Positions 44,416 through 63,017 of a DNA stretch of 64,000 nt are shown here, piece by piece. The position numbers and the translations under genes were made by a program. Positions within the stretch are counted from its first letter, which is position 1. The number at the start of each line of letters is the position of its first letter. Origin of the DNA: Plasmodium malariae. Lineage: Eukaryota; Apicomplexa; Aconoidasida; Haemosporida; Plasmodiidae. Below the pieces are notes generated by a model that was given only the letters and a program-made list of their open reading frames with translations, was not told where the DNA came from and searched no databases. The stretch lies in the NCBI RefSeq assembly GCF_900090045.1, contig NC_041788.1, positions 2,785,501 through 2,849,500 on the forward strand. Direction: 5' to 3'.

Positions 44416-47884
<3,469 letters not shown>

Positions 47885-48852: not shown

Positions 48853-51800
48853 TTAATTGGGTAAGTAATATCCATTGAGCAGTTCGTGGTTCTCCTTAAT
48901 ATATTCAACCAAATGTACTTGGACATTTTCTTTAATATTTTTCGTTAAATTATTTTCCCTTTTAAATAGTTGTTCTTTTACGTAATTCCTAAATGAAGCT
49001 GTGTCCTTTACATCCTTACGTATATGTGCATATATATATAAATATAAATATATTTACATATTTATTTATATGCATATATGTATATATATGGAAAAAAAAT
49101 ATATATTTAACGTAAGCATGTACACAGTTGTGCATATGAAGATGTTTGGACGTATATACGACATTTATGTAAGGCATTACTTTTAGTAACAGTTTTATAT
49201 CCTCCTTTATTTGTGGCAAGTTGATCATTTTTTTTTTGAGCTTTTCCTTAAACATTTGAAATCTGCAATATGGAGATGGGGATAAAAATGAGTGTAAAAT
49301 TAGGGTAAAATAAATGTAGACACAAGTAGAGTTCAACTGAAGCCCCATATGTGTGTATGCCACTTTTCCTGTTCTTTTCTAATATGTTCGAAATTACTTG
49401 TAGTGAAAAATGGACTTATCTCTTTCTTCATTTAGTAAATTTAAAATATCGTATTGTGGCTCATTTTTTATGCCCTTAAGGATTACGTAAAAGTAATTTA
49501 TGGACATGTTACAAAGTTTGTACAGATTATGGAAGTTAAGCTTTTCAGAGCCTGCCATTAATATTTCCAGGGAAGAAGTGTGCATGTGTACGAATGGGTG
49601 CTGCGTATTTGTGTAGTGCGTATATGTATGCACATACATATATATATACACGTGCACATGCACATAACTGCGTAAAGTGCATCTGCAGAATGATATTTTC
49701 CCTACCCAGGTAAGTGAATGAGTTTATCAAGTTAAACGAGTTAGTTGTAACTTTGCAATAATACCCTTCCGTATGAATATTTCGTGATGCCTGGAAATAC
49801 TTAACATTAAAGAATTCACTTAAGTACTTTTCTTTTTTTACACTTATTTTTAATGTGTCTGTAAAAAATGCTTCATTGTATACTTCTCTTCCACTCTGAT
49901 TGTTTTTATATTCTTCCTCATTCTGTGCTATGGATGAATCATGAAATTTGTACAAGTCACCAATTGAAGCTTGGAAATGATAAAAGTACAAATTGCATGG
50001 AAGACTATTAAAATATACTACAGGCATATCAAAAACCTTCAGCATTTTATAAAGATGAATGTTGTTATTTATATTTTCATTTTTCACTTCCTCCAATTCT
50101 TGCTTCGTCTCCGTCTTGATTTCCTTCTTCAATTCGTCCATTAAGTTTGGTTTAGTTACCCCCTTCATGTCTTCCCTTTCTTTTCCTCCTTTTTTTTCTT
50201 TTCCATTTTTCAAGTTAAAAATACTGTAAGATAAGGAGCATTGATCAACTGCTATTCTTAGAAAACGCTTGCTAACCAGCTTTCCTATTTCAATACTGCT
50301 ATAATGTTCATGATTTAACATGTTATCTTTACTTATTCTGTATTTATTTGAAAAGGAGCACAGCTCCCCCGCGCTGAAAATAAACTTGTCATTTGTCTGA
50401 GAAGGGTGAGAAAGAAAAGGATGAAAAAGTGGGGGCATTTGTGAGTGCATATGTGTGTATACTGGGTGGTCAATGTATGTGCACACGTGGGTATATTAGA
50501 TGGTCAATGTATGTGCACACGTGGGTATATTAGATGGTCAATGTATGTGCACACGTGGGTATATTAGATGGTCAATGTATGTGCACACGTGGGTATATTA
50601 GATGGTCAATGTATGTGCACACGTGAGTATATTAGATGGTCGATGTATGTGCACACGTGAGTATATTAGATGGTCAATGTATGTGCACACGTGGGTATAT
50701 TAGATGGTCAATGCATACGTAAACGTATGTACGTTCTTGCGCACACGTGTTTTACTTTTTTCCCCTTTTTGCAGTGTATCACCTGGAAATTGTGGTTGAC
50801 GCATATGTATTGATTGTACACGATTGAGGACTTGTTGAGAATGTAGTGCAAATGATTACTTATGTCAAATATGTAGGATGACAACAAGACTCTACATGGA
50901 ATTAAAACGGTGTTTTTACAAAGATACTTGTACGTTTTAAAGATAGATTTGTCTACTTTCCTGTGTTTACAATAGCGAACTACAATATATTTTAAACGAT
51001 TTTTTTTATTTTTTTTAATTGCTATAATTTGTCCATGAATTATTCGAATTTTTAAAAGATGAAATAAAAAAAATATTTTATTTAATGCATATTTTATATT
51101 TTCAAAAACTGCTTGTTTATGATAAAAATTTTTTTTCTGTATATTATTTGAAAATAGGTAGTTGTCTTTCAAGTGTCCCTCATTTTGGTAATACGTTCTG
51201 TCGTCGCTGATGTTTTTCTGGATGTTTTGGGGGCCATCTTGCTGGAAATTTTGACTATTTTTTTGGAAATGATGACTATTTTTTTGGAAATGATGATTAT
51301 TTTTTTGGAAATGATGATTATTTTTTTGGAAATGATGATTATTTTCTTGGAAATGATGATTATTTTCTTGGATAGATGATGATTATTTTCTTGGAAATGA
51401 TGATTATTTTCTTGGAAATGATGATTATTTTCTTGGAAATGATGATTATTTTCTTGGAAATGATGATTATTTTCTTGGAAATGATGATTATTTTCTTGGA
51501 AATGATGACTATTTTCTTGGAAATGATGACTATTTTTTTGGAAATGATGACTATTTTCTTGGAAATGATGATTATTTTCTTGGAAATGATGATTATTTTC
51601 TTGGAAATGATGATTATTTTCTTGGAAATGATGACTATTTTCTTGGAAATGATGACTATTTTCCTGGCAATGATGACTATTTTCCTGGAAAATTTCTTGA
51701 CCATTTTGACTATTATGACTATTTTTCTGTGTATTTTTCCTTGCACCCCCCTTTACTCTCTTCCTGACTATTTTCTTGTCACATACATCACATGTATATG

Positions 51801-54800
51801 GAGAAATGATGATTAGCTTATATGTGTTTGTGTTATTCTTCAAAAAGAAATTAACCATATTAAACATATTCATATTATTGCTGTAAATAACAATATAACT
51901 AACGCAATTTTTTACAATATTCATATATTTACTTGCTTTGTCAAAATATTTTTCAAGAAAAGGATCGCTAATGCTAAAAACGCCATCAACATTTCTGTGT
52001 ACGTTCATATTGGTTCCGTCCATTTTTTCCTTGCATCCGTCTTTAAGTTTTTCCTCCCCATTTCTGTCCTTCTCCTTCTCCTTCTCGTCCTCCTGTGCCA
52101 GTTCCAACCCCCTTTCCTTCTCTTTTTTCTTAGCTTTTTCCTCGTGTCCGTATGACATGCTTTCCTTTTCGCTACTCATATCATCATTCTTGTTATTAAA
52201 ATGGGTACGGGTAGCATATGATTCCTTTATCTTGTTACAGTTTCTGTTCTCCTCATTTTGTACTTCACTTTGTATATTATTTTTTATGAAGCTGTTGATG
52301 GTGGTACCTTTTCTGCTGAACCCTTTGTCAATCTCATCCATTTTTCCTCTTTTTCTTTCAACCACATTGTTATCGTTGTTGTTGTCATTCTGCACAATGG
52401 CATCGCTACGTACCTCCTCCTTCTTCCCTTTGTCTTCATCATCATTATCACTCGTATCACTTGTCCGTAGACAGCTAGATGATAAAGAGGAGTAACTAGA
52501 GTACTCCTTTTCTGTGTTTCCCTCCTCTGTGTTTTCCTTTAACTCATCTCCTTTATTTCTTCTCTTTTTTTTTTTTATTCTTTTTTGTCTCACCTCCTCC
52601 TCATCTTCTTCGTTAGACTTTATCTTCTGGGCACAGTTACTATCTTTATTTTTCCTTTTATGTTTGCATGCATTGCTTTTTATTTTTTCCTTTTTATTTA
52701 ACTCATTCATATTGTATTCCCTATCCGCGTAATTTGCCTGGACACCCTTAAATTTGCCCTTAAACTGGTCCGCTTCGTTCGAATCACAGCTGGAGCTCTC
52801 ATGTGAGCAGTGAGGCGAGCAGTGAGGCGAGCAGTGAGGCGAGCAGTGAGGTGAGCAGTGAGGTGAGCAGTGAGGTGAGCTGTGAGGCTTTGCCTTTGAC
52901 ATCTCCCTTTTGGTATCATTATTACGGCCAGTCTTACTTCTAGTCCCATCGCTAACCCTTGGATGTTCGAACTCTTCGTACTTTTCGTAGTCCTTGGCCT
53001 TAACCAGGAAGTCCAACTTCTCATTTGCGTACATGACCCGTTGGTGGTGTTCAATAAAATTATAATTTTTTTTTTTACCCGCTTCGTAGCTATTTAAATT
53101 GAAGGAGTAAGTAGTGATGTCTTCTTTGTCAAAGCATATAAAGAGGTAATCATAGAATACAAAATTGTTGTTATTTAGTTCAAGTTTTTTGTTTTCTCTA
53201 TCAATATTATAAACATCATCATATAATATCTTTATCCTTTGCTTTAACATAATATTTTTTAATTTCCTGTACATAAGTGAGCTTTCGAGCGAGTAGCTCT
53301 TTATGGAGTCGTATTCCTCCATACTGCTATCGTCATCATTACTTGCAATGTTATTGTAATTACCACTACCATTTCTACTGCCACTATAACTGCTAGTTCT
53401 ACTGAAATGCTTATTTCTGTATGCTATGATGAGGGTTATATTATTAAATATATACTCATTGTTTACAAGGATTTTATAAAGTACACATAAACACATATCG
53501 TTAATACCCCAAAGGACTAAATTATGATCAATGTTAATACATTTCTTTGAACACATTTGTTTTGTCAACAATAAATATTTTTTATGACATCCTTTTTTCC
53601 TCTTGGATGCTTTCATTTCTTCTTTATATTCATCAAACACATTTCCCTTTTTAAAAATACTCACACTGTTATCTTTTTCGTTTAAGAATTTAAAGTGGTT
53701 ATACACCTCTCTATAGATGTTGTCCTCTACTGACACATGGCAAGAACACGATTTCGTCAGCCTGAAAAGGAAGCGAGCGTTCGCGCTAATGAGAACACGT
53801 ATATGTGCTTATAAATGTATATATACACCATACATATACATATATACCAAAATATTCGCTCAAACGTAAGCAAAAGTACACCCACATATGCATATATACC
53901 CAAATATGAACACAATTAGTAGCAAAAAGTACACCCATACAATGCAACAACAAAGCATGCAGCTTTTGGTTCTTTCATTTTACACTAATATGTTATGTAT
54001 AATCTTTTTATCGTAATATTTGAAAATAATTATGGAGGAAAAAAAGTAAAGTAGAAAGTGCTTAGTTTCTTCATTGTCGCTTTGAAGAATTATATTTTTA
54101 AAATTGAAATATTTCGTTTTATAGTAAAAGTCAATATTGTTAAGTAGACATCCTGACGTTATGTTTATTATTTTGCTTCCACACCTACTCACAAATATAT
54201 AATAATTATTTGATCGATAGAAGTCCAGCTCTGAGAAGGGAAAAAATAATATGACAGTTATGTCCTTCCAAGCGCTTGTATATGCACACATACATGCACC
54301 CATACATTTCCAAATACATTTCCAGATACATGTCCAAATACATGCACATATACACTTCCAAATACATTCCCAAATGCATGCACACATATATGCATATATA
54401 TTTATACATACATACATGCACATGTATACGGCCCTATGCGTGCAACGCAGCCGCTTATCTTTGTCTCATCTGACCTGGAAACGAACCCGCGGGGTGCTTA
54501 ACCGGGTTGTTGCTGTTCCCCCCCGTCTTGCAATATTCCTTAAGAGACAAAATAATTTCATTAATTTTGTTCTTCTCAGAATGATTAATACCATCTAGTA
54601 GTTTCCGAACCTCATCTTCATCACTTAGTTTCATGTAATCCGTTGACGGGGGTAAGAATAAAGTGTATTTATTTAATACATATAAAGACTCCAAAATATT
54701 AGCTTTTTTTTTTTTCTTAACTCTATTGAAATAGTTTAATATATAAGGAATATTTCCCCTTTCGTTATTAGTGGCAATAATATAGTCGACTTCGTCATAG

Positions 54801-57800
54801 TACTTTTCTATTTTTAGTAAAACGTCCTTACAGTTGTTCCAGTACTGGTATAAGTGGTTTGGATGAGGGAAAAAAAAAAAAAAAAATATATATATGAGGT
54901 GTAATGTGCACAGAAAAAGTGCGAGTAGAACTGCACATGGGTAAAATTCAAGGTGTAATATACACGGGTAAAACACAATGAGAAGTGTACACTATATTGT
55001 TCATGTGATGCTAATAAGGGGAATGCATTTTGCATGTGCCCTATGACGTTATCTTTACATCCAGAAAACAAATGATACAATGTCTTCTCATCATTTAGAT
55101 TTACCTTATCATTCAAAATAAACATGTTAAGAGAAAAGGCATTTTTGTCCTTATCGATTAGGTTAGATAACCAGTCGATATGTTTGTACTTACATATAAA
55201 ATAATTTTTCTTTATATTTACTAATTCGTCCAAGTGTAGCTGTGAGCATGTAGAGGGGTGATACAGGTGGACAAAAAGAAAAAAAAAAAAAAATAGATAT
55301 GAGATATGAGAAACAATAAAATAAATTGAAATGAAGTAAAATGAAATAAAAAAATTAATTAATGAATAAATTAATGAAAAAATTAATGAATAAATTAATG
55401 AAAAAATTAAAGAAAAAATTAAAGAAAAAATTAATGAAAAAATTAATGAAAAAATTAATGAAAAAATTAATGAAAAAATTAATAGAAGAAAAATCATGCC
55501 CTTACTTTAAAAGAAACGCAGTCGAACATGGTCGACTCCTCCACTGTAACTAACTCGTACAAGTCGAGGAACAAAAACAGAAGTATTATTTCGTTCTGAA
55601 ATGTGTAAAGAGATGAGAGAGAAAAGTGTGTTCATGTAGGTGTATGTATATATATATATATATGTACAAATGTTACGCAGAACCTTGTCTTACTGACACG
55701 TTAACATGTTCATTTATTTCTCCTTTTTTTTTTTTTTTTTTTTTTCTATCCTTACCTTTTTAAACGTCTCCGGGTATATATTTTGAAGTAATAAAAAAAT
55801 ATCGTAGTACGAGAGGTTTATAACTTCCTTAAAATTTCTGTCGGGTTTCTTTTTCCCACCATCGTGGTTAAACTTGATTATATTTATTTTGCTGCCACCT
55901 ATTAAATTATAAGGATCAATATATTCAACCATGTATATATATATGTATGCACATATACGTACGTGTGGACACTATGCAAATATGCAATACCATTTTCAAA
56001 TCCCTCGTCGCTTTTCGCCCCCTCCTTTTTCTTTTTTATCTTTTCGTATATTTTTTTGTACGTCTTGTCCTTGTTAAAATTAAAATATAATATCTCAATT
56101 TTTTCGAAATTCTTGTGAAACTTTTTGCTCACTTTCTCGATCTGATTCAAAAAAATAAAATAAAATAAAAAAATAAAAGGTGTTACAACATGTGTTACTA
56201 GAGTATTAACAGGAGTCGTTCCTTTAAGAAATGAAGCATATGATCACATGCATATACCCATATATACATGTTTACACGCACGCACACATACATACATACA
56301 TTTACATATTTATGCATTTGTAAACGAATTTGCATCCTTTGCACATACGTCGGAAAAGCTGATATGGGAATACAAATATAATAATTTTTTTAAGAGAGAG
56401 ATGTTGACATTATTGCCATCGGAGTCTTGTTTGTTGTGTTCGTAATCATACTGAAGCTGTTTTTAAAAATTAAATGAACAGCATGTACATATGAAAACAT
56501 ATGTATTGCACAATAATGGAGTGACGAAACAATGATATGCACCCAATCTACATTCACTGAGTAAGCGGTACTACATTTTACGCATGTGCTTATGTAGTAC
56601 GCGTATGTAATTAAGCATGGGTGCGTATTCTTATACATGTTTGTGCTTTATTTTATTTTATTATATTATTCTGTTTCCTTCTACATACGTGGTTGTAAAT
56701 ACTCCTTATCACAGTTCTTGTGTCTAAATTTTTCTTAACAAAATAATCGGCGTAGATTTCCACGTCATCAATTAAATGCTCATTTAAGAAGCCGTAGATA
56801 ACTGCATCGTTGATTTCATATCTCTTATGTAAATCGTTCAGATTTTCTATTCTTATTTTCTTCAAAATGAATTGCTTAAATTCTATAAACAAGTATTTCT
56901 TTTTTTTTTTGTTTAACGTTTTTGTTCCTTCCTTGTATGATGTCTAAAAAAAAAAAAGAAAAAAAAAAAATAAATAATCCACACAAAAAATGTTAGAGCC
57001 ATGCGTACCTACACGATTGACCTATGTAATTACGGTTGTTCGTTGTAGCAACTCTTTTGATATTTCTAACTGGTTTGTTTATTTGCTGTCTTTATGCTCT
57101 CGCTGCTAATACTGCTAATGCTGCTAATGCTGCTAATACTGCCTATAAGCACTTGCTTCTAATACATCCTTTATGTACTCCCTTTTTGCAGTTTTTTTGA
57201 GACTATTTCCCGCTACATGGGGTGCATGAGCAACACTTACCAGAGCTGGAGCTATGTCAGTATAAAATTCATTTTTCAGGAGGTAGTTATAGTTCTTCAA
57301 ATTGTAAAGCTTGACTAGTATATTCACATCTATATTTTTCTTTAACCATATAAACCCTATGATTTTTTTCTTACTATTTAGTACTGTTAATAATATATCA
57401 TCTTTTTTTTTTTTTTCAATAATATCATAGATAAGATAGTGATTTGTTTCCTCTACATCTTGTCGGGAATATCTCTTAAACAGTTCATGTAAATCATATA
57501 TATCAGAACTACAAGTTAAACGCAGGAAAATTTTACTAACATATGAGTATTTATTTAGCAGGAAAAGATGTTTGTACTCACTTTTTAGTAGTAGATCGTT
57601 TTCTAGATCTACTACTATCCCATGAGTAGTATGTAATAACTCTTCTTTCAGTGTTAAATTGTTATCTTTTAAAAATACTAATATGAATACTAAATCCTCA
57701 AACGAACGAAACAAATATGAAAAGAGAGAATCATAATAACTCACATGATCAGTTAACAGCAAATTTACTATTAGCGTATTATTACTATTAACATTTGATA

Positions 57801-58182
57801 TGATATTATGCTTCTTTATATGCAATGATAAGGAGTAATAGAAATCTTCTAAAATAAACTCCTTATTTTTTACAATATCTTTTTTATAGGATGAAGACAG
57901 CTCATAATCAAGAGAAGCAATACCCAAAATATTCTTCTCCTTTTCATTATCAATTTTCCTTTTTTCAAATATTGTTATACAAATAGATGAATACTGAACT
58001 GTGTTAATTATTTCGGAGTAAGCTGATTTAGACAGGCAGCTATTCCTTTGGATCTCATATGACTCCTCTTTATTCTGAGCAATATTATTTAAAGCATAAA
58101 CTACATACTCATCAACAAATTTGCACTTATCTTTCAATCGCATCAAATGTTTGTGTTTGTAAAATTTAAACGTGTATTCCAT
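48853..58182 (-). CDS. CFAP61: Cilia- and flagella-associated protein 61 homologue (CFAP61), 14 exons, frame interrupted in a coding repeat
   Basis: CFAP61 is an axonemal protein of the calmodulin- and radial-spoke-associated complex. Exons, in coding order: 58182-57241, 56943-56689, 56456-56349, 56141-55991, 55898-55756, 55595-55506, 55239-54991 (end uncertain), 54844-54475, 54230-53984, 53761-50783, 50396-49706, 49551-49398, 49262-49181, 49014-48853. All phases match; the total is about 2206 residues (human about 1240). Exon 1 matches the N-terminal GNAT-like part (IIGFIWLKKNIDVNIL). Exon 10 carries the nucleotide-binding-like fold (NLVLWGINDMCLCVLYKILV, FNNITLIIAY, YDYLFICFD). NHNFQ|TNDKFIFSAGELCSF spans exons 10-11. 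SEKLNFHNLYKLC, then YVILKGI, matches the C-terminal region. Exon 10 is broken by two extra bases near 51371-51378, in a 21-bp repeat. Expected role: male gamete axonemes. Confidence 0.8.
50463..50715. repeat. 34-bp tandem array in CFAP61 intron 10
   Basis: Seven copies (plus a degenerate eighth) of a 34-bp unit, GATGGTCAATGTATGTGCAC followed by ACGTGGGTATATTA, lie within intron 50397-50782. Copies differ by single bases (GTGAG for GTGGG; TCGATG for TCAATG). Each holds the palindrome GTGCAC. Confidence 0.95.
51243..51705. repeat. 21-bp coding repeat (HHFQENN) in CFAP61 exon 10
   Basis: About 22 copies encode His-His-Phe-Gln-Glu-Asn-Asn/Ser on the minus strand. One unit (51364-51386) is two bases longer (CATCATCTATCCAA instead of CATCATTTCCAA), shifting the frame. 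Beyond it the original frame reads Ser-Lys-Lys-Ile-Ile to a stop, while CFAP61 homology continues in the other frame. Confidence 0.95.
52800..52885. repeat. 12-bp coding repeat (CSPH) in CFAP61 exon 10
   Basis: Six to seven copies of CAGTGAGGCGAG / CAGTGAGGTGAG encode Cys-Ser-Pro-His on the minus strand, in a low-complexity insertion rich in Lys, Glu and Ser. Confidence 0.9.
55355..55492. repeat. AATTAATGAAAA repeat in CFAP61 intron 6
   Basis: Tandem 12-bp units (AATTAATGAAAA, some AATTAAAGAAAA) fill most of the 55240-55505 intron. On the minus strand this is a long pyrimidine tract leading to the acceptor. Confidence 0.85.
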
Positions 58183-59349: not shown

Positions 59350-62300
59350 TTAGCCATTTTTAATTTTTTTTTGAAGCCTCTCTTCATTTTCAATCATTTC
59401 CTGCAGTATCCTCTTCGTGTTTTCTATTACGTTCAAGTTCGAGTTTTCGTCTTTTTCTATCTCCTTAACTCCCCTGTGCGAACTCCTGAAGTGAGAAACG
59501 AGGAACAAGCGAATGTGATGCGTGTAACTAGGCAGTGAACACAGAAAAAAATATGAACAGTTAAACAAGTAGCTTAATACAATTCAAAAGAATGAACTAG
59601 CACTTCTAGTTAATAATATTACGTAAATATGCTTAGGACGCTTCTTTTTATTCTTATCATGTCTCTGAAGGTGTGCTCGTTTCCATGCAATGCTTCAAAT
59701 TCTCTCCAATCCTGAGGGGGGTGGGGAAAATACAAAATATGAAGAAAAATGCAGAAAAGGCTCGAAAAAAAAAAAAAAATAAAAAAAAAAAATAAACATG
59801 ACAGAAAAAAGCTCGAAAAGAAAAAAAATATGTACACGAATGGATACACCAACAGTCTAATACAATCTTAACGCTCATTGTGTCAAGGTTTGCAACCTGG
59901 TAAAACTTCGAATAGGCCAATGGATTAGTAAACTGAGCCGTGTAAATGTAAAGCGCCCTGACACGCTCATATTCGTTTAACTTATATTCCATGTCAATAT
60001 ATAACAAACAAATTTCTCTCGCCTATAAATATTTGACAAAAAAACGAAATGACAATCAAAAAAAAAAAAAAAAGAAAAAATTTGTAAGTTCATTTTTATG
60101 CGTTTGAAGAACATATGTGCATGTGTTTACATCGTCATCCTTTAGCGTTTGAATAGCCTCCTCAAATGCTTCCCTGGCTTTGTGAACTCCATAGGATTTG
60201 GATATCTAAAGGGAGCACGGGAAAAAAAAAATATAAAGTAAAAAATAAAATATATGCATATGTATGCATTTATATTTGTATTTGTGTATGCATTTATATT
60301 TGTATTTGTGTATGCATTTATATTTGTATTTGTGTATGCATTTATGTATGTACACCTTGGCACTCGAGAAAGAATGCTGGAACATTACTAACCTTCCAAA
60401 TGAACATCTTATAAAATGTAGCTTTGTCCTTTTCCTCCAGAAAGGGAATAGCCTCTTTATAAATACTCAGTGAATTCTTCAAAAAGCCATAATTTTCTTC
60501 AAATAAAGCATACATGAAAAAAATATACTTAGCAAATTCTTTTGGAATATACGTTTTGTTGTCAATACCATAAATAGCTTGTTTAAACAGTTCACGCACA
60601 TATGAAATATTTTTGTCTTTATATCTCTCAATGTATTTATTAATATAATTGGCATAAATGGGGTATAAATAAGGGTAGTGAAATATAGAAATAGCTTTCT
60701 CGTAAATTTTAAAACATTCATTAAAGTATTTATGTGTGTACAGAAAATTAGCAAAGGACAAAACCATTTTCACAGTAATACTTTTTGCATGATACAAAAC
60801 ATCAAACATGCTTATGGACGTTTCAACTGTGCCGTAATTTATTTCCATATCAAGAATTAAGCACATCAATTTGGTTGAGTTTAGAAGGTTAAACTCGGTA
60901 TGTGCGAGCACATCGCCATCAGTACTGTCCCGTAGACCTCTACTGTAAATACTGATTGCATTGTTTTCCCCGCTTCTACTAGTATTGTGCACATTAAATG
61001 TAGTTCCATTTTCTGCTTTCCCTTTAAAGGATTTTCCTCTGCCAATATCAATAGCCAACCTGGCTACATTCAACGCTTCCTTGTAATTTGCTTGCAGTAA
61101 TTCTAGTTCAACCCATGAGCAAAATATATTTGCCATTTCGTTGACATTTTTGAAATTTTTTTCTTTTATAGCTCTATGGAAAACCTTTACAGATTCGTCA
61201 TATTTGTTCCTGTTATAATAGTAGTATGCATAACTAATATATACATCACTCAATCTCCCTATGTATTCATTATGCTCAAAATGTATTAAACACTTGTTGA
61301 AGAGATCTACTTTATCAGTATCATTTGCAACTGCATCAATTTTGCTTAACCATATGTACACATTATTTTTATTGTTTTTCAGTTTAATATCAGCTATAAA
61401 TATTTTCCTTACATCCAAAAGGTAGTTTATTTTTTCCATATACAAATCGATTACAAAATCATCATTTGGTTTTATTCCCTCTGAAATTAGTTCATTGTCT
61501 ATTGCTTCTTTCTCCTCTTCAACATATAAATCACTTGTGCTAGTATTCCTTTTTTCCTCTTGTTGATTTATTTTCAAATCTATCAACACCTTCAACGTTT
61601 CAATGTAGTTTTCAAAAAGAATTGAAAAGTCATTAACTGTGTAACATTCTGATATCCCCTCTTCATATGAATCCATAGCCTTATTCCATCTACCCTCGTA
61701 CACATAATTATTTGCTAATAGAATGAAAATAGATGTAACATTTTCATAATTTTTAAAAATATTTATATTTTTTTTCAAAATTTCCATAACGTCATTATTT
61801 AAAACTTTAGCTGAACTAATTAAATTAAATATTTCTTTATATAAATCATATTTTGATTTATTTCCTAAATCTAACGTCTCCTCTTCACAATTAAGTATAT
61901 AAAAAAAAGTACCTATTGCATGTTTATACATTTTATATTTTACATAATGATCAAATAAAAATATGACTTGTTCAGGATAAATTGTTATATATCTTTTAAT
62001 ATATTCATAATTAATTAACTTATTGTTTATTTTCTCATTATATTCTAATTGATAAAACCATAAATCTTCATGTTGATTTAAAAAAACATTCTGTAAAGAG
62101 CGATTGAATACTTCTCTTATCTTTTGAACTTTCCTTTGAATATATAAAAATTGAATGTACATAATATAGATGGACTTAAAATGGTACATATATAATAGAC
62201 ACTTTTCAAAAATCGCATTCACTTGTTCATATTCTCTTCTGTTATCGTAATAGACATCCTTTATCATCTCTATGCTATCTCTTATGTAGTTATACCACAG

Positions 62301-63017
62301 CTTGAAGCTGAACGGGAAGTACTTCAGAACAACTTGGTAAATTCTGCGCAAGTAGTACTCCTTCGTGCGCGCACTGCCATTGCTACTGTTATTTTCATCT
62401 TCATCGCTGCTCTGCTCTTTACCATACCCACGTGCTTTAACCTCACCCACATCATAATCCTGTTCTTCCTCCTCATAACCTAGCTTTTCCTGTTCGTGCT
62501 CCTCCTCATCATCCTCATTTCCAATATGTGAACACCCTAACTGGACAGTACTATCATAATACATGATGCCCTTTTTTAGACCCCCCTTTACGTTACTCTT
62601 TCTACCTCCATTTATTAACTCTGTCAAACAGTACTCCACGATATTGTTCTCTGTTTCCAACACGTTGAGCTTATCTTTTTTTAAATGTATATCGTACATA
62701 TTTAAAACATACAAATTGTTTTCCTTCTTTATATTCTTTTCCTTAAATTTATTAATATATAAAAATAAGTATTTTGTAGACACTTTTTCTAAATTGCTCT
62801 TTATATCTATTTCAATACTTTTCAAATAATTCTCATTTTCTGTATTTTTGTAACTGTTTATAAACTTATTACTGTAATTCATCTCATCGACAAAATAATC
62901 TTTTTCTTCATAAAACGCTTCCTCCCTCGAGGTAACATTGTTCTCGTTAAAAAATAAATCATCATAGTCGTACAACTCTCCGTACAGTTCCATTATGCTG
63001 CTATTACTTGTGTACAT
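59350..63017 (-). CDS. SYF1: Pre-mRNA-splicing factor SYF1 (XAB2), HAT-repeat protein
   Basis: SYF1/XAB2 is a HAT-repeat scaffold of the Prp19/NTC and intron-binding complex in the active spliceosome. Five exons (63017-60393, 60205-60131, 60022-59897, 59711-59623, 59485-59350) give 1016 residues (human 855). HAT signatures start at about residue 235 (LKYFPFSFKLWYNYIRDS; YERGISLF-like YEKAISIFHYPYLYPIYANY). ISKSYGVHKAREAFEEAIQ, AREICLLYIDMEYKLNEY and QDWREFEALHGNEHTFRDMI (across the exon 3-4 join) match the family's conserved C-terminus, so the four small exons are secure. The phases are 0,0,0,2. An acidic insertion lies at about 170-215. It is tandem with CFAP61 on the minus strand. Confidence 0.95.
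60262..60352. repeat. 24-bp tandem repeat in SYF1 intron 1
   Basis: Three to four copies of TGCATTTATATTTGTATTTGTGTA lie in the intron 60206-60392. Confidence 0.9.

What the first reader, a model, noticed from the sequence alone, without database searches (positions are those of the whole stretch)
48853..58182. A CFAP61 homologue reconstructed from 14 exons
Separate short open segments over 9.3 kb link with consistent phases into one ~2206-residue protein with CFAP61 order: GNAT-like N-terminus, nucleotide-binding-like fold, TNDKFIFSAGEL core, C-terminal helices. Plasmodium builds 9+2 axonemes only in male gametes, in the cytoplasm and without usual transport, and reduced radial-spoke sets are of interest. 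Gene prediction is likely to split or mislabel such a gene as hypothetical proteins.
Basis: partly seen in the sequence, partly recalled or inferred. Interest (0 to 1): 0.75.

Follow-up and report, generated by a model that had tools for sequence, protein, structure and literature searches.

The report
Malaria parasite CFAP61 flagellum gene
A 14-exon gene in the malaria parasite Plasmodium malariae encodes the parasite's version of CFAP61, a part of the radial spokes that control flagellar beating; the protein family is known, but in these parasites the protein is mostly filed as of unknown function.

Summary
Fourteen exons on the minus strand (58182 to 48853), joined by 13 GT-AG introns, encode a CFAP61 homologue. 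The window lies in Plasmodium malariae. Orthologues from ten other Plasmodium species align along the whole gene. A profile of them finds only CFAP61-type chains among solved structures (5 of 5, best E 2.6e-19).
Exon 10 carries a 21-base tandem array with one unit 2 bases longer than the rest (51381-51367). The reading frame changes there, and a plain reading stops after 1677 residues. The part beyond the array shows no decay. The break is recent, a sequence error, or hidden in an unannotated intron; I cannot tell which.
CFAP91, CFAP61's docking partner, is encoded in the same genome (106.6 bits). The text of a 2023 survey credits Plasmodium with RSP3, RSP9 and RSP4/6 only and does not mention CFAP61. 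So Plasmodium probably keeps an RS3-type spoke base. This is a new member of a known family; some orthologues already carry the CFAP61 domain name in databases.

The parts
57241..58182 (-). exon 1 (314 codons, start ATG at 58182): GNAT-like CFAP61 N-terminal region
   Evidence: Pfam CFAP61_N 51.7 bits, E 1.3e-13
57274..57816 (-). match to Pfam PF16092 CFAP61_N (profile 76-263 of 264)
56689..56943 (-). exon 2
56349..56456 (-). exon 3
55991..56141 (-). exon 4
55756..55898 (-). exon 5
55506..55595 (-). exon 6
55105..55239 (-). exon 7; donor at 55105 (AAG|GTAAAT) matches the orthologues (FILNDK|Y); a donor at 55059 is out of phase
54475..54844 (-). exon 8
53984..54230 (-). exon 9
50783..53761 (-). 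exon 10: Rossmann-like segment, long low-complexity stretch, 21-bp tandem array with frame change, start of the conserved core
53137..53535 (-). Rossmann-like (FAD/NAD-binding-type) segment; the last glycine of the nucleotide loop reads cysteine in 11 of 11 Plasmodium rows
51243..51691 (-). tandem array, period 21, 21.3 copies (NNHHFQE-type units); ten orthologues have a 39-46-residue linker here and no array
51367..51381 (-). irregular unit, 2 nt longer than the usual unit: the reading frame changes here
51218..51756 (-). candidate unannotated intron (539 nt, GTAAAG...CCAG) that spans the array; if spliced, the linker would be 37 residues; one of several in-phase pairs, not shown to be used
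50259..50869 (-). most conserved CFAP61 core, from FDISNHLHY... through TNDKFIFSAGELCSFSNKY to ...VSKRFL (interrupted by intron 10)
   Evidence: (8j07 chain d0, E 1.9e-4)
49706..50396 (-). exon 11
49487..50033 (-). weak match to Pfam PF23150 CFAP61_dimer (23 bits, cut-off 27.9), exons 11-12
   Evidence: P. vivax orthologue passes the cut-off
49398..49551 (-). exon 12
49181..49262 (-). exon 13
48853..49014 (-). exon 14, stop TAA at 48855-48853

Best explanation
[quoted passage not shown] Shown here: gene structure, family membership, conservation across Plasmodium, and presence of CFAP91 in the same genome. Inferred: the protein is made in male gametocytes and docks with CFAP91 on doublet microtubules when the axoneme is built in the cytoplasm. 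There it would hold an RS3-type spoke and nearby inner dynein arms in register. Its GNAT-like and Rossmann-like folds most likely act as structural modules, not enzymes, because the nucleotide loop is degenerate.
For: CFAP61_N over its curated cut-off in the window. C-terminal half matches only CFAP61-type chains in PDB, 5 of 5 up to E 1. Profile of 10 Plasmodium orthologues matches only CFAP61-type chains, 5 of 5 distinct sequences at E 0.01 or better, best 2.6e-19; in the two alignments printed the N-terminal (weak), Rossmann-like and core segments follow the CFAP61 order. Thirteen Plasmodium homologues, 49-66% identical over the part aligned. Foldseek ranks the CFAP61 chains of Chlamydomonas and human first and second for the Rossmann-like segment. 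CFAP91 at 106.6 bits in the same genome, matching 7 CFAP91-type PDB sequences. Role of CFAP61 and CFAP91 in Tetrahymena RS3 from PMC9776847 (passages) and in human sperm from PMC8841411 (passages). The P. falciparum MAATS1-domain gene PF3D7_0714100, which by locus number is CFAP91 (P. gaboni PGSY75_0714100), is among genes downregulated in a mutant that forms no exflagellation centres (PMC9602455, passages).
Against: No expression or localisation data for this gene were seen. CFAP61_dimer stays below its cut-off here. Two of 4 orthologues scanned, P. gallinaceum and P. falciparum, hit no Pfam family at E 0.1. The N-terminal 1040 residues alone reach only E 0.041 in PDB. Both structure models are of low confidence (mean pLDDT 50.8 and 51.9), and the TM-scores to CFAP61 chains are low (0.38 or less by query length). 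CFAP251, the third CSC protein, was not tested. The exon 10 frame change means this assembly does not encode the full protein by plain reading.
Confidence: 0.87

Rival explanations
1. In the sequenced P. malariae isolate the gene is truly frame-shifted in the exon 10 array and yields a 1677-residue protein without the conserved C-terminal core, i.e. a recent pseudogene or null allele.
For: Frame change at 51381-51367 and a stop after 1677 residues. No P. malariae CFAP61 protein appeared in two searches that would be expected to find one (only the 7985 and 7987 candidates sharing most words were scored), although the P. malariae CFAP91 protein did appear; a pseudogene annotation would explain that but was not seen.
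Against: The part after the array shows no decay: it differs at 4 of 165 columns invariant in the other 10 sequences, against 19 of 347 in the N part and 1 of 30 in the stretch just before the array. All C-terminal splice sites and frames are intact.
Confidence: 0.2
2. The array lies in an unannotated, P. malariae-specific intron, so the frame change is harmless.
For: A 539-nt GT-AG pair (51756 to 51218) is in phase on both sides and would give a 37-residue linker, where ten orthologues have 39 (8 of 10), 43 or 46 residues. Its donor score (6.6) and acceptor score (5.8) lie within the leave-one-out range of the 13 accepted introns. Tandem repeats sit in other introns of this gene.
Against: Another open in-phase pair scores higher (13.9 against 12.4 in sum) and one equals it; a third, at 14.1, leaves a stop. 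So the pair is not singled out by score. Expanded low-complexity stretches in coding sequence are common in Plasmodium (established knowledge).
Confidence: 0.3
3. The 2-nt difference is an assembly or sequencing error in a repeat, and the real allele is in frame and codes for the array.
For: The break falls inside a 21-copy array and the sequence on both sides is conserved.
Against: The irregular unit also differs by substitution, which is not the simplest error type. No reads were available.
Confidence: 0.45
4. Not CFAP61 but a Plasmodium-specific protein with generic GNAT and oxidoreductase folds.
For: Foldseek also lists many GNAT enzymes, ranked above CFAP61 for exon 1, and sulfide:quinone oxidoreductases. 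Pfam misses 2 of 4 orthologues scanned. One search lists three oxidoreductase sequences at E 0.59-0.62.
Against: Sequence profile hits are CFAP61-type only, 5 of 5, including the core outside both folds.
Confidence: 0.02

Closest known systems
CFAP61 (Chlamydomonas FAP61/CaM-IP3; human and mouse CFAP61; T. brucei 9e5c chain 5d)
   Same: CFAP61_N domain, Rossmann-like middle, conserved core (pattern NF.TND..I..AG.L..FSN.Y in the alignment to 8j07), C-terminal region, same order
   Different: 1848-2015 residues in ten orthologues, 2168 here, against 1147-1347 in the PDB chains, with long low-complexity inserts; three unnamed relatives also have 1739-1783. In 11 of 11 Plasmodium rows the last glycine of the Rossmann loop is cysteine, while the 3 unnamed rows keep it.
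Plasmodium orthologues P0001-P0010 (P. vivax, P. falciparum, P. gaboni PGSY75_1235800 and others)
   Same: Same gene; exon junctions agree (one row differs at one junction); identity 47-93% over exons other than exon 10, and 44-57% over exon 10, in the eight rows printed
   Different: None of the ten holds the array at that place; linkers are 39-46 residues.
CFAP91 (MAATS1/AAT-1), the CSC docking partner
   Same: Present in the same genome at C14:1384654-1385058, 106.6 bits; P. malariae protein record P0017, 100% identical
   Different: A separate gene, outside the window; annotated 'unknown function'.

Membership tests
CFAP61 | CFAP61_N (PF16092) over curated cut-off | tested here: met
   51.7 bits against 27 on exon 1
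CFAP61 | CFAP61_dimer (PF23150) over curated cut-off | tested here: inconclusive
   23.0 bits against 27.9 on the window's C-terminal piece; six-frame genome search found none at E 1, where the domain is split by an intron; P. vivax 29.6 passes, P. vinckei 26.8 does not, P. gallinaceum and P. falciparum not listed
CFAP61 | Best and exclusive relatives among solved structures are CFAP61 chains | tested here: met
   5 of 5 sequences; one of them, 9fqr_Xg, is labelled CFAP20 but aligns like the CFAP61 chains, so I take the label as a slip
CFAP61 | Domain order GNAT-like, Rossmann-like, conserved core, C-terminal region | tested here: met
   two alignments printed (GNAT part weak; low-confidence models)
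CFAP61 | One continuous coding sequence in this genome | tested here: not met
   2-nt frame change in the exon 10 array; continuous protein models in 10 other species. This bears on this allele, not on the family.
CSC / RS3 base | CFAP91 present in the genome | tested here: met
CSC / RS3 base | CFAP251 and calmodulin present and bound | not tested
   no family model or query sequence for CFAP251 was at hand
CSC / RS3 base | Location at the RS3 stalk/base on doublet microtubules | not testable with these tools
   needs imaging

The most novel reading that the evidence does not exclude
Plasmodium's minimal radial spoke is an RS3/CSC-docked spoke: the parasite kept CFAP61 and CFAP91 as the docking base under an RSP3/RSP4-6/RSP9 head while losing most RS1/RS2-specific parts. 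In P. malariae, moreover, a minisatellite in this gene has turned into a spliced intron or a length-polymorphic on/off site.
Probability: 0.2. Interest if true: 0.6.

Novelty: new member of a known kind. Interest (0 to 1): 0.4.

Why it matters
Plasmodium male gametes build their axoneme in about 10 minutes without intraflagellar transport, and loss of the spoke head protein RSP9 blocks axoneme formation there but not in Leishmania (PMC10309588: abstract, section 6 and part 1 of section 11 read). That paper's text credits Plasmodium with RSP3, RSP9 and RSP4/6 only and does not mention CFAP61. Adding CFAP61, and CFAP91, which was among its queries, changes the expected make-up of the 'minimal' spoke, points to an RS3-type base, and gives two likely male-gamete genes to test. 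The P. malariae frame change is a practical warning for annotation.

Tried and rejected
Exon 7 alternatives: the donor at 55059 (GTAAAG) is out of phase with exon 8; 55105 was chosen and the orthologues agree. An in-phase donor GTCATA a little further on was considered and dropped for the same reason.

Generic oxidoreductase/acetyltransferase reading: rejected.

Negative genome searches that prove little: RSP3 (PF06098), although a paper reports RSP3 in Plasmodium, so a miss in intron-containing genes is not absence; likewise FAP206 and NYD-SP28/DRC1-2 (a drc1 gene is named by PMC11144265, section 9 read). Positive: RSP4/6 and GAS8/DRC4-type.

Paper searches: CFAP61 with Plasmodium, 0 papers; CFAP91 with Plasmodium, 0; PF3D7_1235800, 0; Plasmodium with radial spoke and calmodulin- and spoke-associated complex, 0. 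Guessed P. berghei locus numbers occur in none of the 20 papers listed of 27 (7 not listed). FAP61, FAP91, MAATS1 or AAT-1 with Plasmodium: 7 of the 21 papers hold Plasmodium, none of them with FAP61. I opened passages in 4 of those 7 (PMC10309588, PMC9602455, PMC4345034, PMC3499766); the other 3 were seen in the listing only. All this covers only the open-licence library; supplementary files were not read. One search ('1235800' anywhere) gave only unrelated papers among the 20 listed of 79.

One search's donor/acceptor ranking used a failed anchor and was replaced. The leave-one-out score ranges rest on 13 introns only. One search counted intron 10 in the wrong frame; one search recounted it (5 stops).

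Full report
What was claimed.

Gene structure. I rebuilt the gene from the sequence. Exons (high to low): 58182-57241, 56943-56689, 56456-56349, 56141-55991, 55898-55756, 55595-55506, 55239-55105, 54844-54475, 54230-53984, 53761-50783, 50396-49706, 49551-49398, 49262-49181, 49014-48853. All 13 introns are GT-AG, 92 to 386 nt; 11 of 13 hold in-frame stops.

The flaw. Exon 10 is not one open frame. It contains a 21-bp array (51243-51691, 21.3 copies) read as NNHHFQE-type units. One unit, 51381-51367, is 2 nt longer than the usual one, so the frame that enters the array is not the frame that leaves it; plain translation stops after 1677 residues. The two pieces are 1609 and 559 residues.

Species. 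The genome holds 33.6 Mb in 62 contigs and the window lies on contig C14, which is 3,564,281 bases long. A gene elsewhere on C14 encodes a protein 100% identical to a record named Plasmodium malariae on a contig of exactly that length. I conclude that the window is P. malariae.

Orthologues. A protein search with the N-terminal 1484 residues returned 13 proteins, all Plasmodium, among 7985 candidates scored. Ten of them, 1848 to 2015 residues long and from ten species, were aligned; P0011-P0013 (1847, 1728 and 856 residues, further P. falciparum isolates matching 36-40% of the query) were left out. In the 8 rows printed, 13 of 13 junctions are free of a gap at the junction itself, except that P0007 has extra residues after exon 4/5. 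NCBI names are 'unknown function', 'hypothetical' or 'uncharacterized'; the truncated UniRef names begin 'Cilia- and flage...' for P. gallinaceum, P. inui, P. coatneyi, P. vivax, P. fragile and P. ovale wallikeri ('Cilia- and f...' in the last), and 'Uncharacterized' for P. falciparum, P. gaboni and P. relictum. A profile of the 10 added only three unnamed proteins of 1739-1783 residues with both CFAP61 Pfam domains, among 7987 candidates scored. No P. malariae record of this protein appeared in either search; I infer, but did not see, that it is annotated as a pseudogene or not at all.

Family. Pfam CFAP61_N scores 51.7 bits (cut-off 27) on exon 1. CFAP61_dimer scores 23.0 (cut-off 27.9) on the C-terminal piece; of 4 orthologues scanned, P. 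vivax passes that cut-off, P. vinckei just fails it, and P. gallinaceum and P. falciparum hit no family at E 0.1. Against solved structures the N-terminal 1040 residues alone give only a weak best hit, again CFAP61 (E 0.041), followed by three oxidoreductase sequences at E 0.59-0.62. The C-terminal half gives 5 sequences up to E 1, all CFAP61-type, best E 1.9e-4. The profile of 10 orthologues gives 5 of 5 CFAP61-type sequences at E 0.01 or better, best 2.6e-19; in the two alignments printed, a weak GNAT-region match, a clear Rossmann-region match and a clear core match follow in order. One of the five (9fqr_Xg) is labelled CFAP20; its alignment is that of CFAP61.

Folds. AlphaFold models of exon 1 and of the start of exon 10 are of low overall confidence (mean pLDDT 51.9 and 50.8). 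Foldseek nevertheless puts the CFAP61 chains of Chlamydomonas and human (8glv_LZ, 8j07_d0) first and second for the exon 10 model, followed by sulfide:quinone oxidoreductases (8 of 781 matches at E 0.001 or better; TM-scores by query length 0.38 and 0.34). For exon 1 it lists GNAT enzymes first, with human CFAP61 at rank 15 (19 of 790 at E 0.001 or better). In the Rossmann loop the 3 unnamed non-Plasmodium rows read G-x-S-D-T-G, whereas 11 of 11 Plasmodium rows end in cysteine, so nucleotide binding is unlikely and a structural role is more likely.

The array and the frame. Where P. malariae has the array, ten orthologues have a linker of 39 residues (8 of 10), 43 (P. ovale wallikeri) or 46 (P. 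vinckei) (the pattern had caught nine of 13 proteins, all 39). A 539-nt GT-AG pair (51756-51218) that spans the array is in phase on both sides and would leave 37 residues if spliced; its scores (6.6, 5.8) are ordinary for this gene, but one other open pair scores higher and one the same. After the array the protein differs at 4 of 165 columns invariant in the other ten sequences, against 19 of 347 in the N part (P. ovale 15 of 176 and 36 of 364). The downstream part is therefore not decaying. Sequence error, cryptic intron and recent break all remain open.

Partner. CFAP91 is encoded on the same contig (106.6 bits; 16 further homologues; 7 CFAP91-type PDB sequences, best 1e-45). In Tetrahymena CFAP91 is needed for CFAP61, CFAP251 and CFAP206 to stay in cilia, and axonemes without CFAP61 lack all or, more often, part of RS3 (PMC9776847, passages). 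In infertile men with CFAP61 variants, spokes, central pair and inner arms are missing from sperm tails (PMC8841411, passages).

What is in print. The RSP9 paper (PMC10309588: abstract, section 6 and part 1 of section 11 read; figures not held) searched most of RSP1-23, FAP91, FAP251 and three uncharacterised proteins, and states that Plasmodium has RSP3, RSP9 and RSP4/6, with a tentative RSP7/11 protein judged unlikely to be a spoke part; 'FAP61' does not occur in its text. I cannot see whether its Fig. 1A marks FAP91. PMC9602455 (passages) names PF3D7_0714100 as a MAATS1-domain protein downregulated in a mutant without exflagellation. No paper in the library holds both CFAP61 and Plasmodium. 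The Pf locus PF3D7_1235800 is recalled and agrees with the P. gaboni number.

Verdict. A real CFAP61 gene, a new member of a known family, with a frame peculiarity in P. malariae that I did not find described, and support for an RS3-type spoke base in Plasmodium. Interest is moderate.

Noticed in passing
window 51367-51381: One unit of a 21-bp array is 2 nt longer than the usual unit and shifts the reading frame in exon 10 of the P. malariae CFAP61 gene.
   Followed up: partly
window 50445-50713: A 34-bp minisatellite (7.9 copies) fills most of intron 10 of the same gene.
   Followed up: no
window 53137-53535: Last glycine of the Rossmann loop is cysteine in all 11 Plasmodium CFAP61 rows, glycine in 3 unnamed relatives.
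   Followed up: partly
G000 C14:1384654-1385058 (L002): CFAP91 gene in P. malariae, annotated 'conserved Plasmodium protein, unknown function'.
   Followed up: yes
G000 C14:3107209-3108211 (L005, L007) and C11:1447171-1447407 (L006): Matches to the GAS8/DRC4 family (78.2, 32.9 and 39.7 bits; cut-off 32.3), a nexin-dynein regulatory complex protein, although PMC4150949 (section 16 read) says no nexin links have been described. The family also rang, below cut-off, in 4 of 14 control genomes, so the weaker two may be coiled-coil chance.
   Followed up: no
window 60342-63017 and 46232-47884: Neighbouring genes: SYF1-type splicing factor (HAT repeats, minus strand) and ATP synthase alpha/beta-family subunit, plus strand.
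   Followed up: yes
PDB 9fqr chain Xg: Chain labelled CFAP20 aligns as CFAP61; probably a naming slip.
   Followed up: no
P0008 (P. falciparum orthologue): Pfam finds neither CFAP61 domain in the P. falciparum protein at E 0.1, which may be why it is still called uncharacterized.
   Followed up: partly
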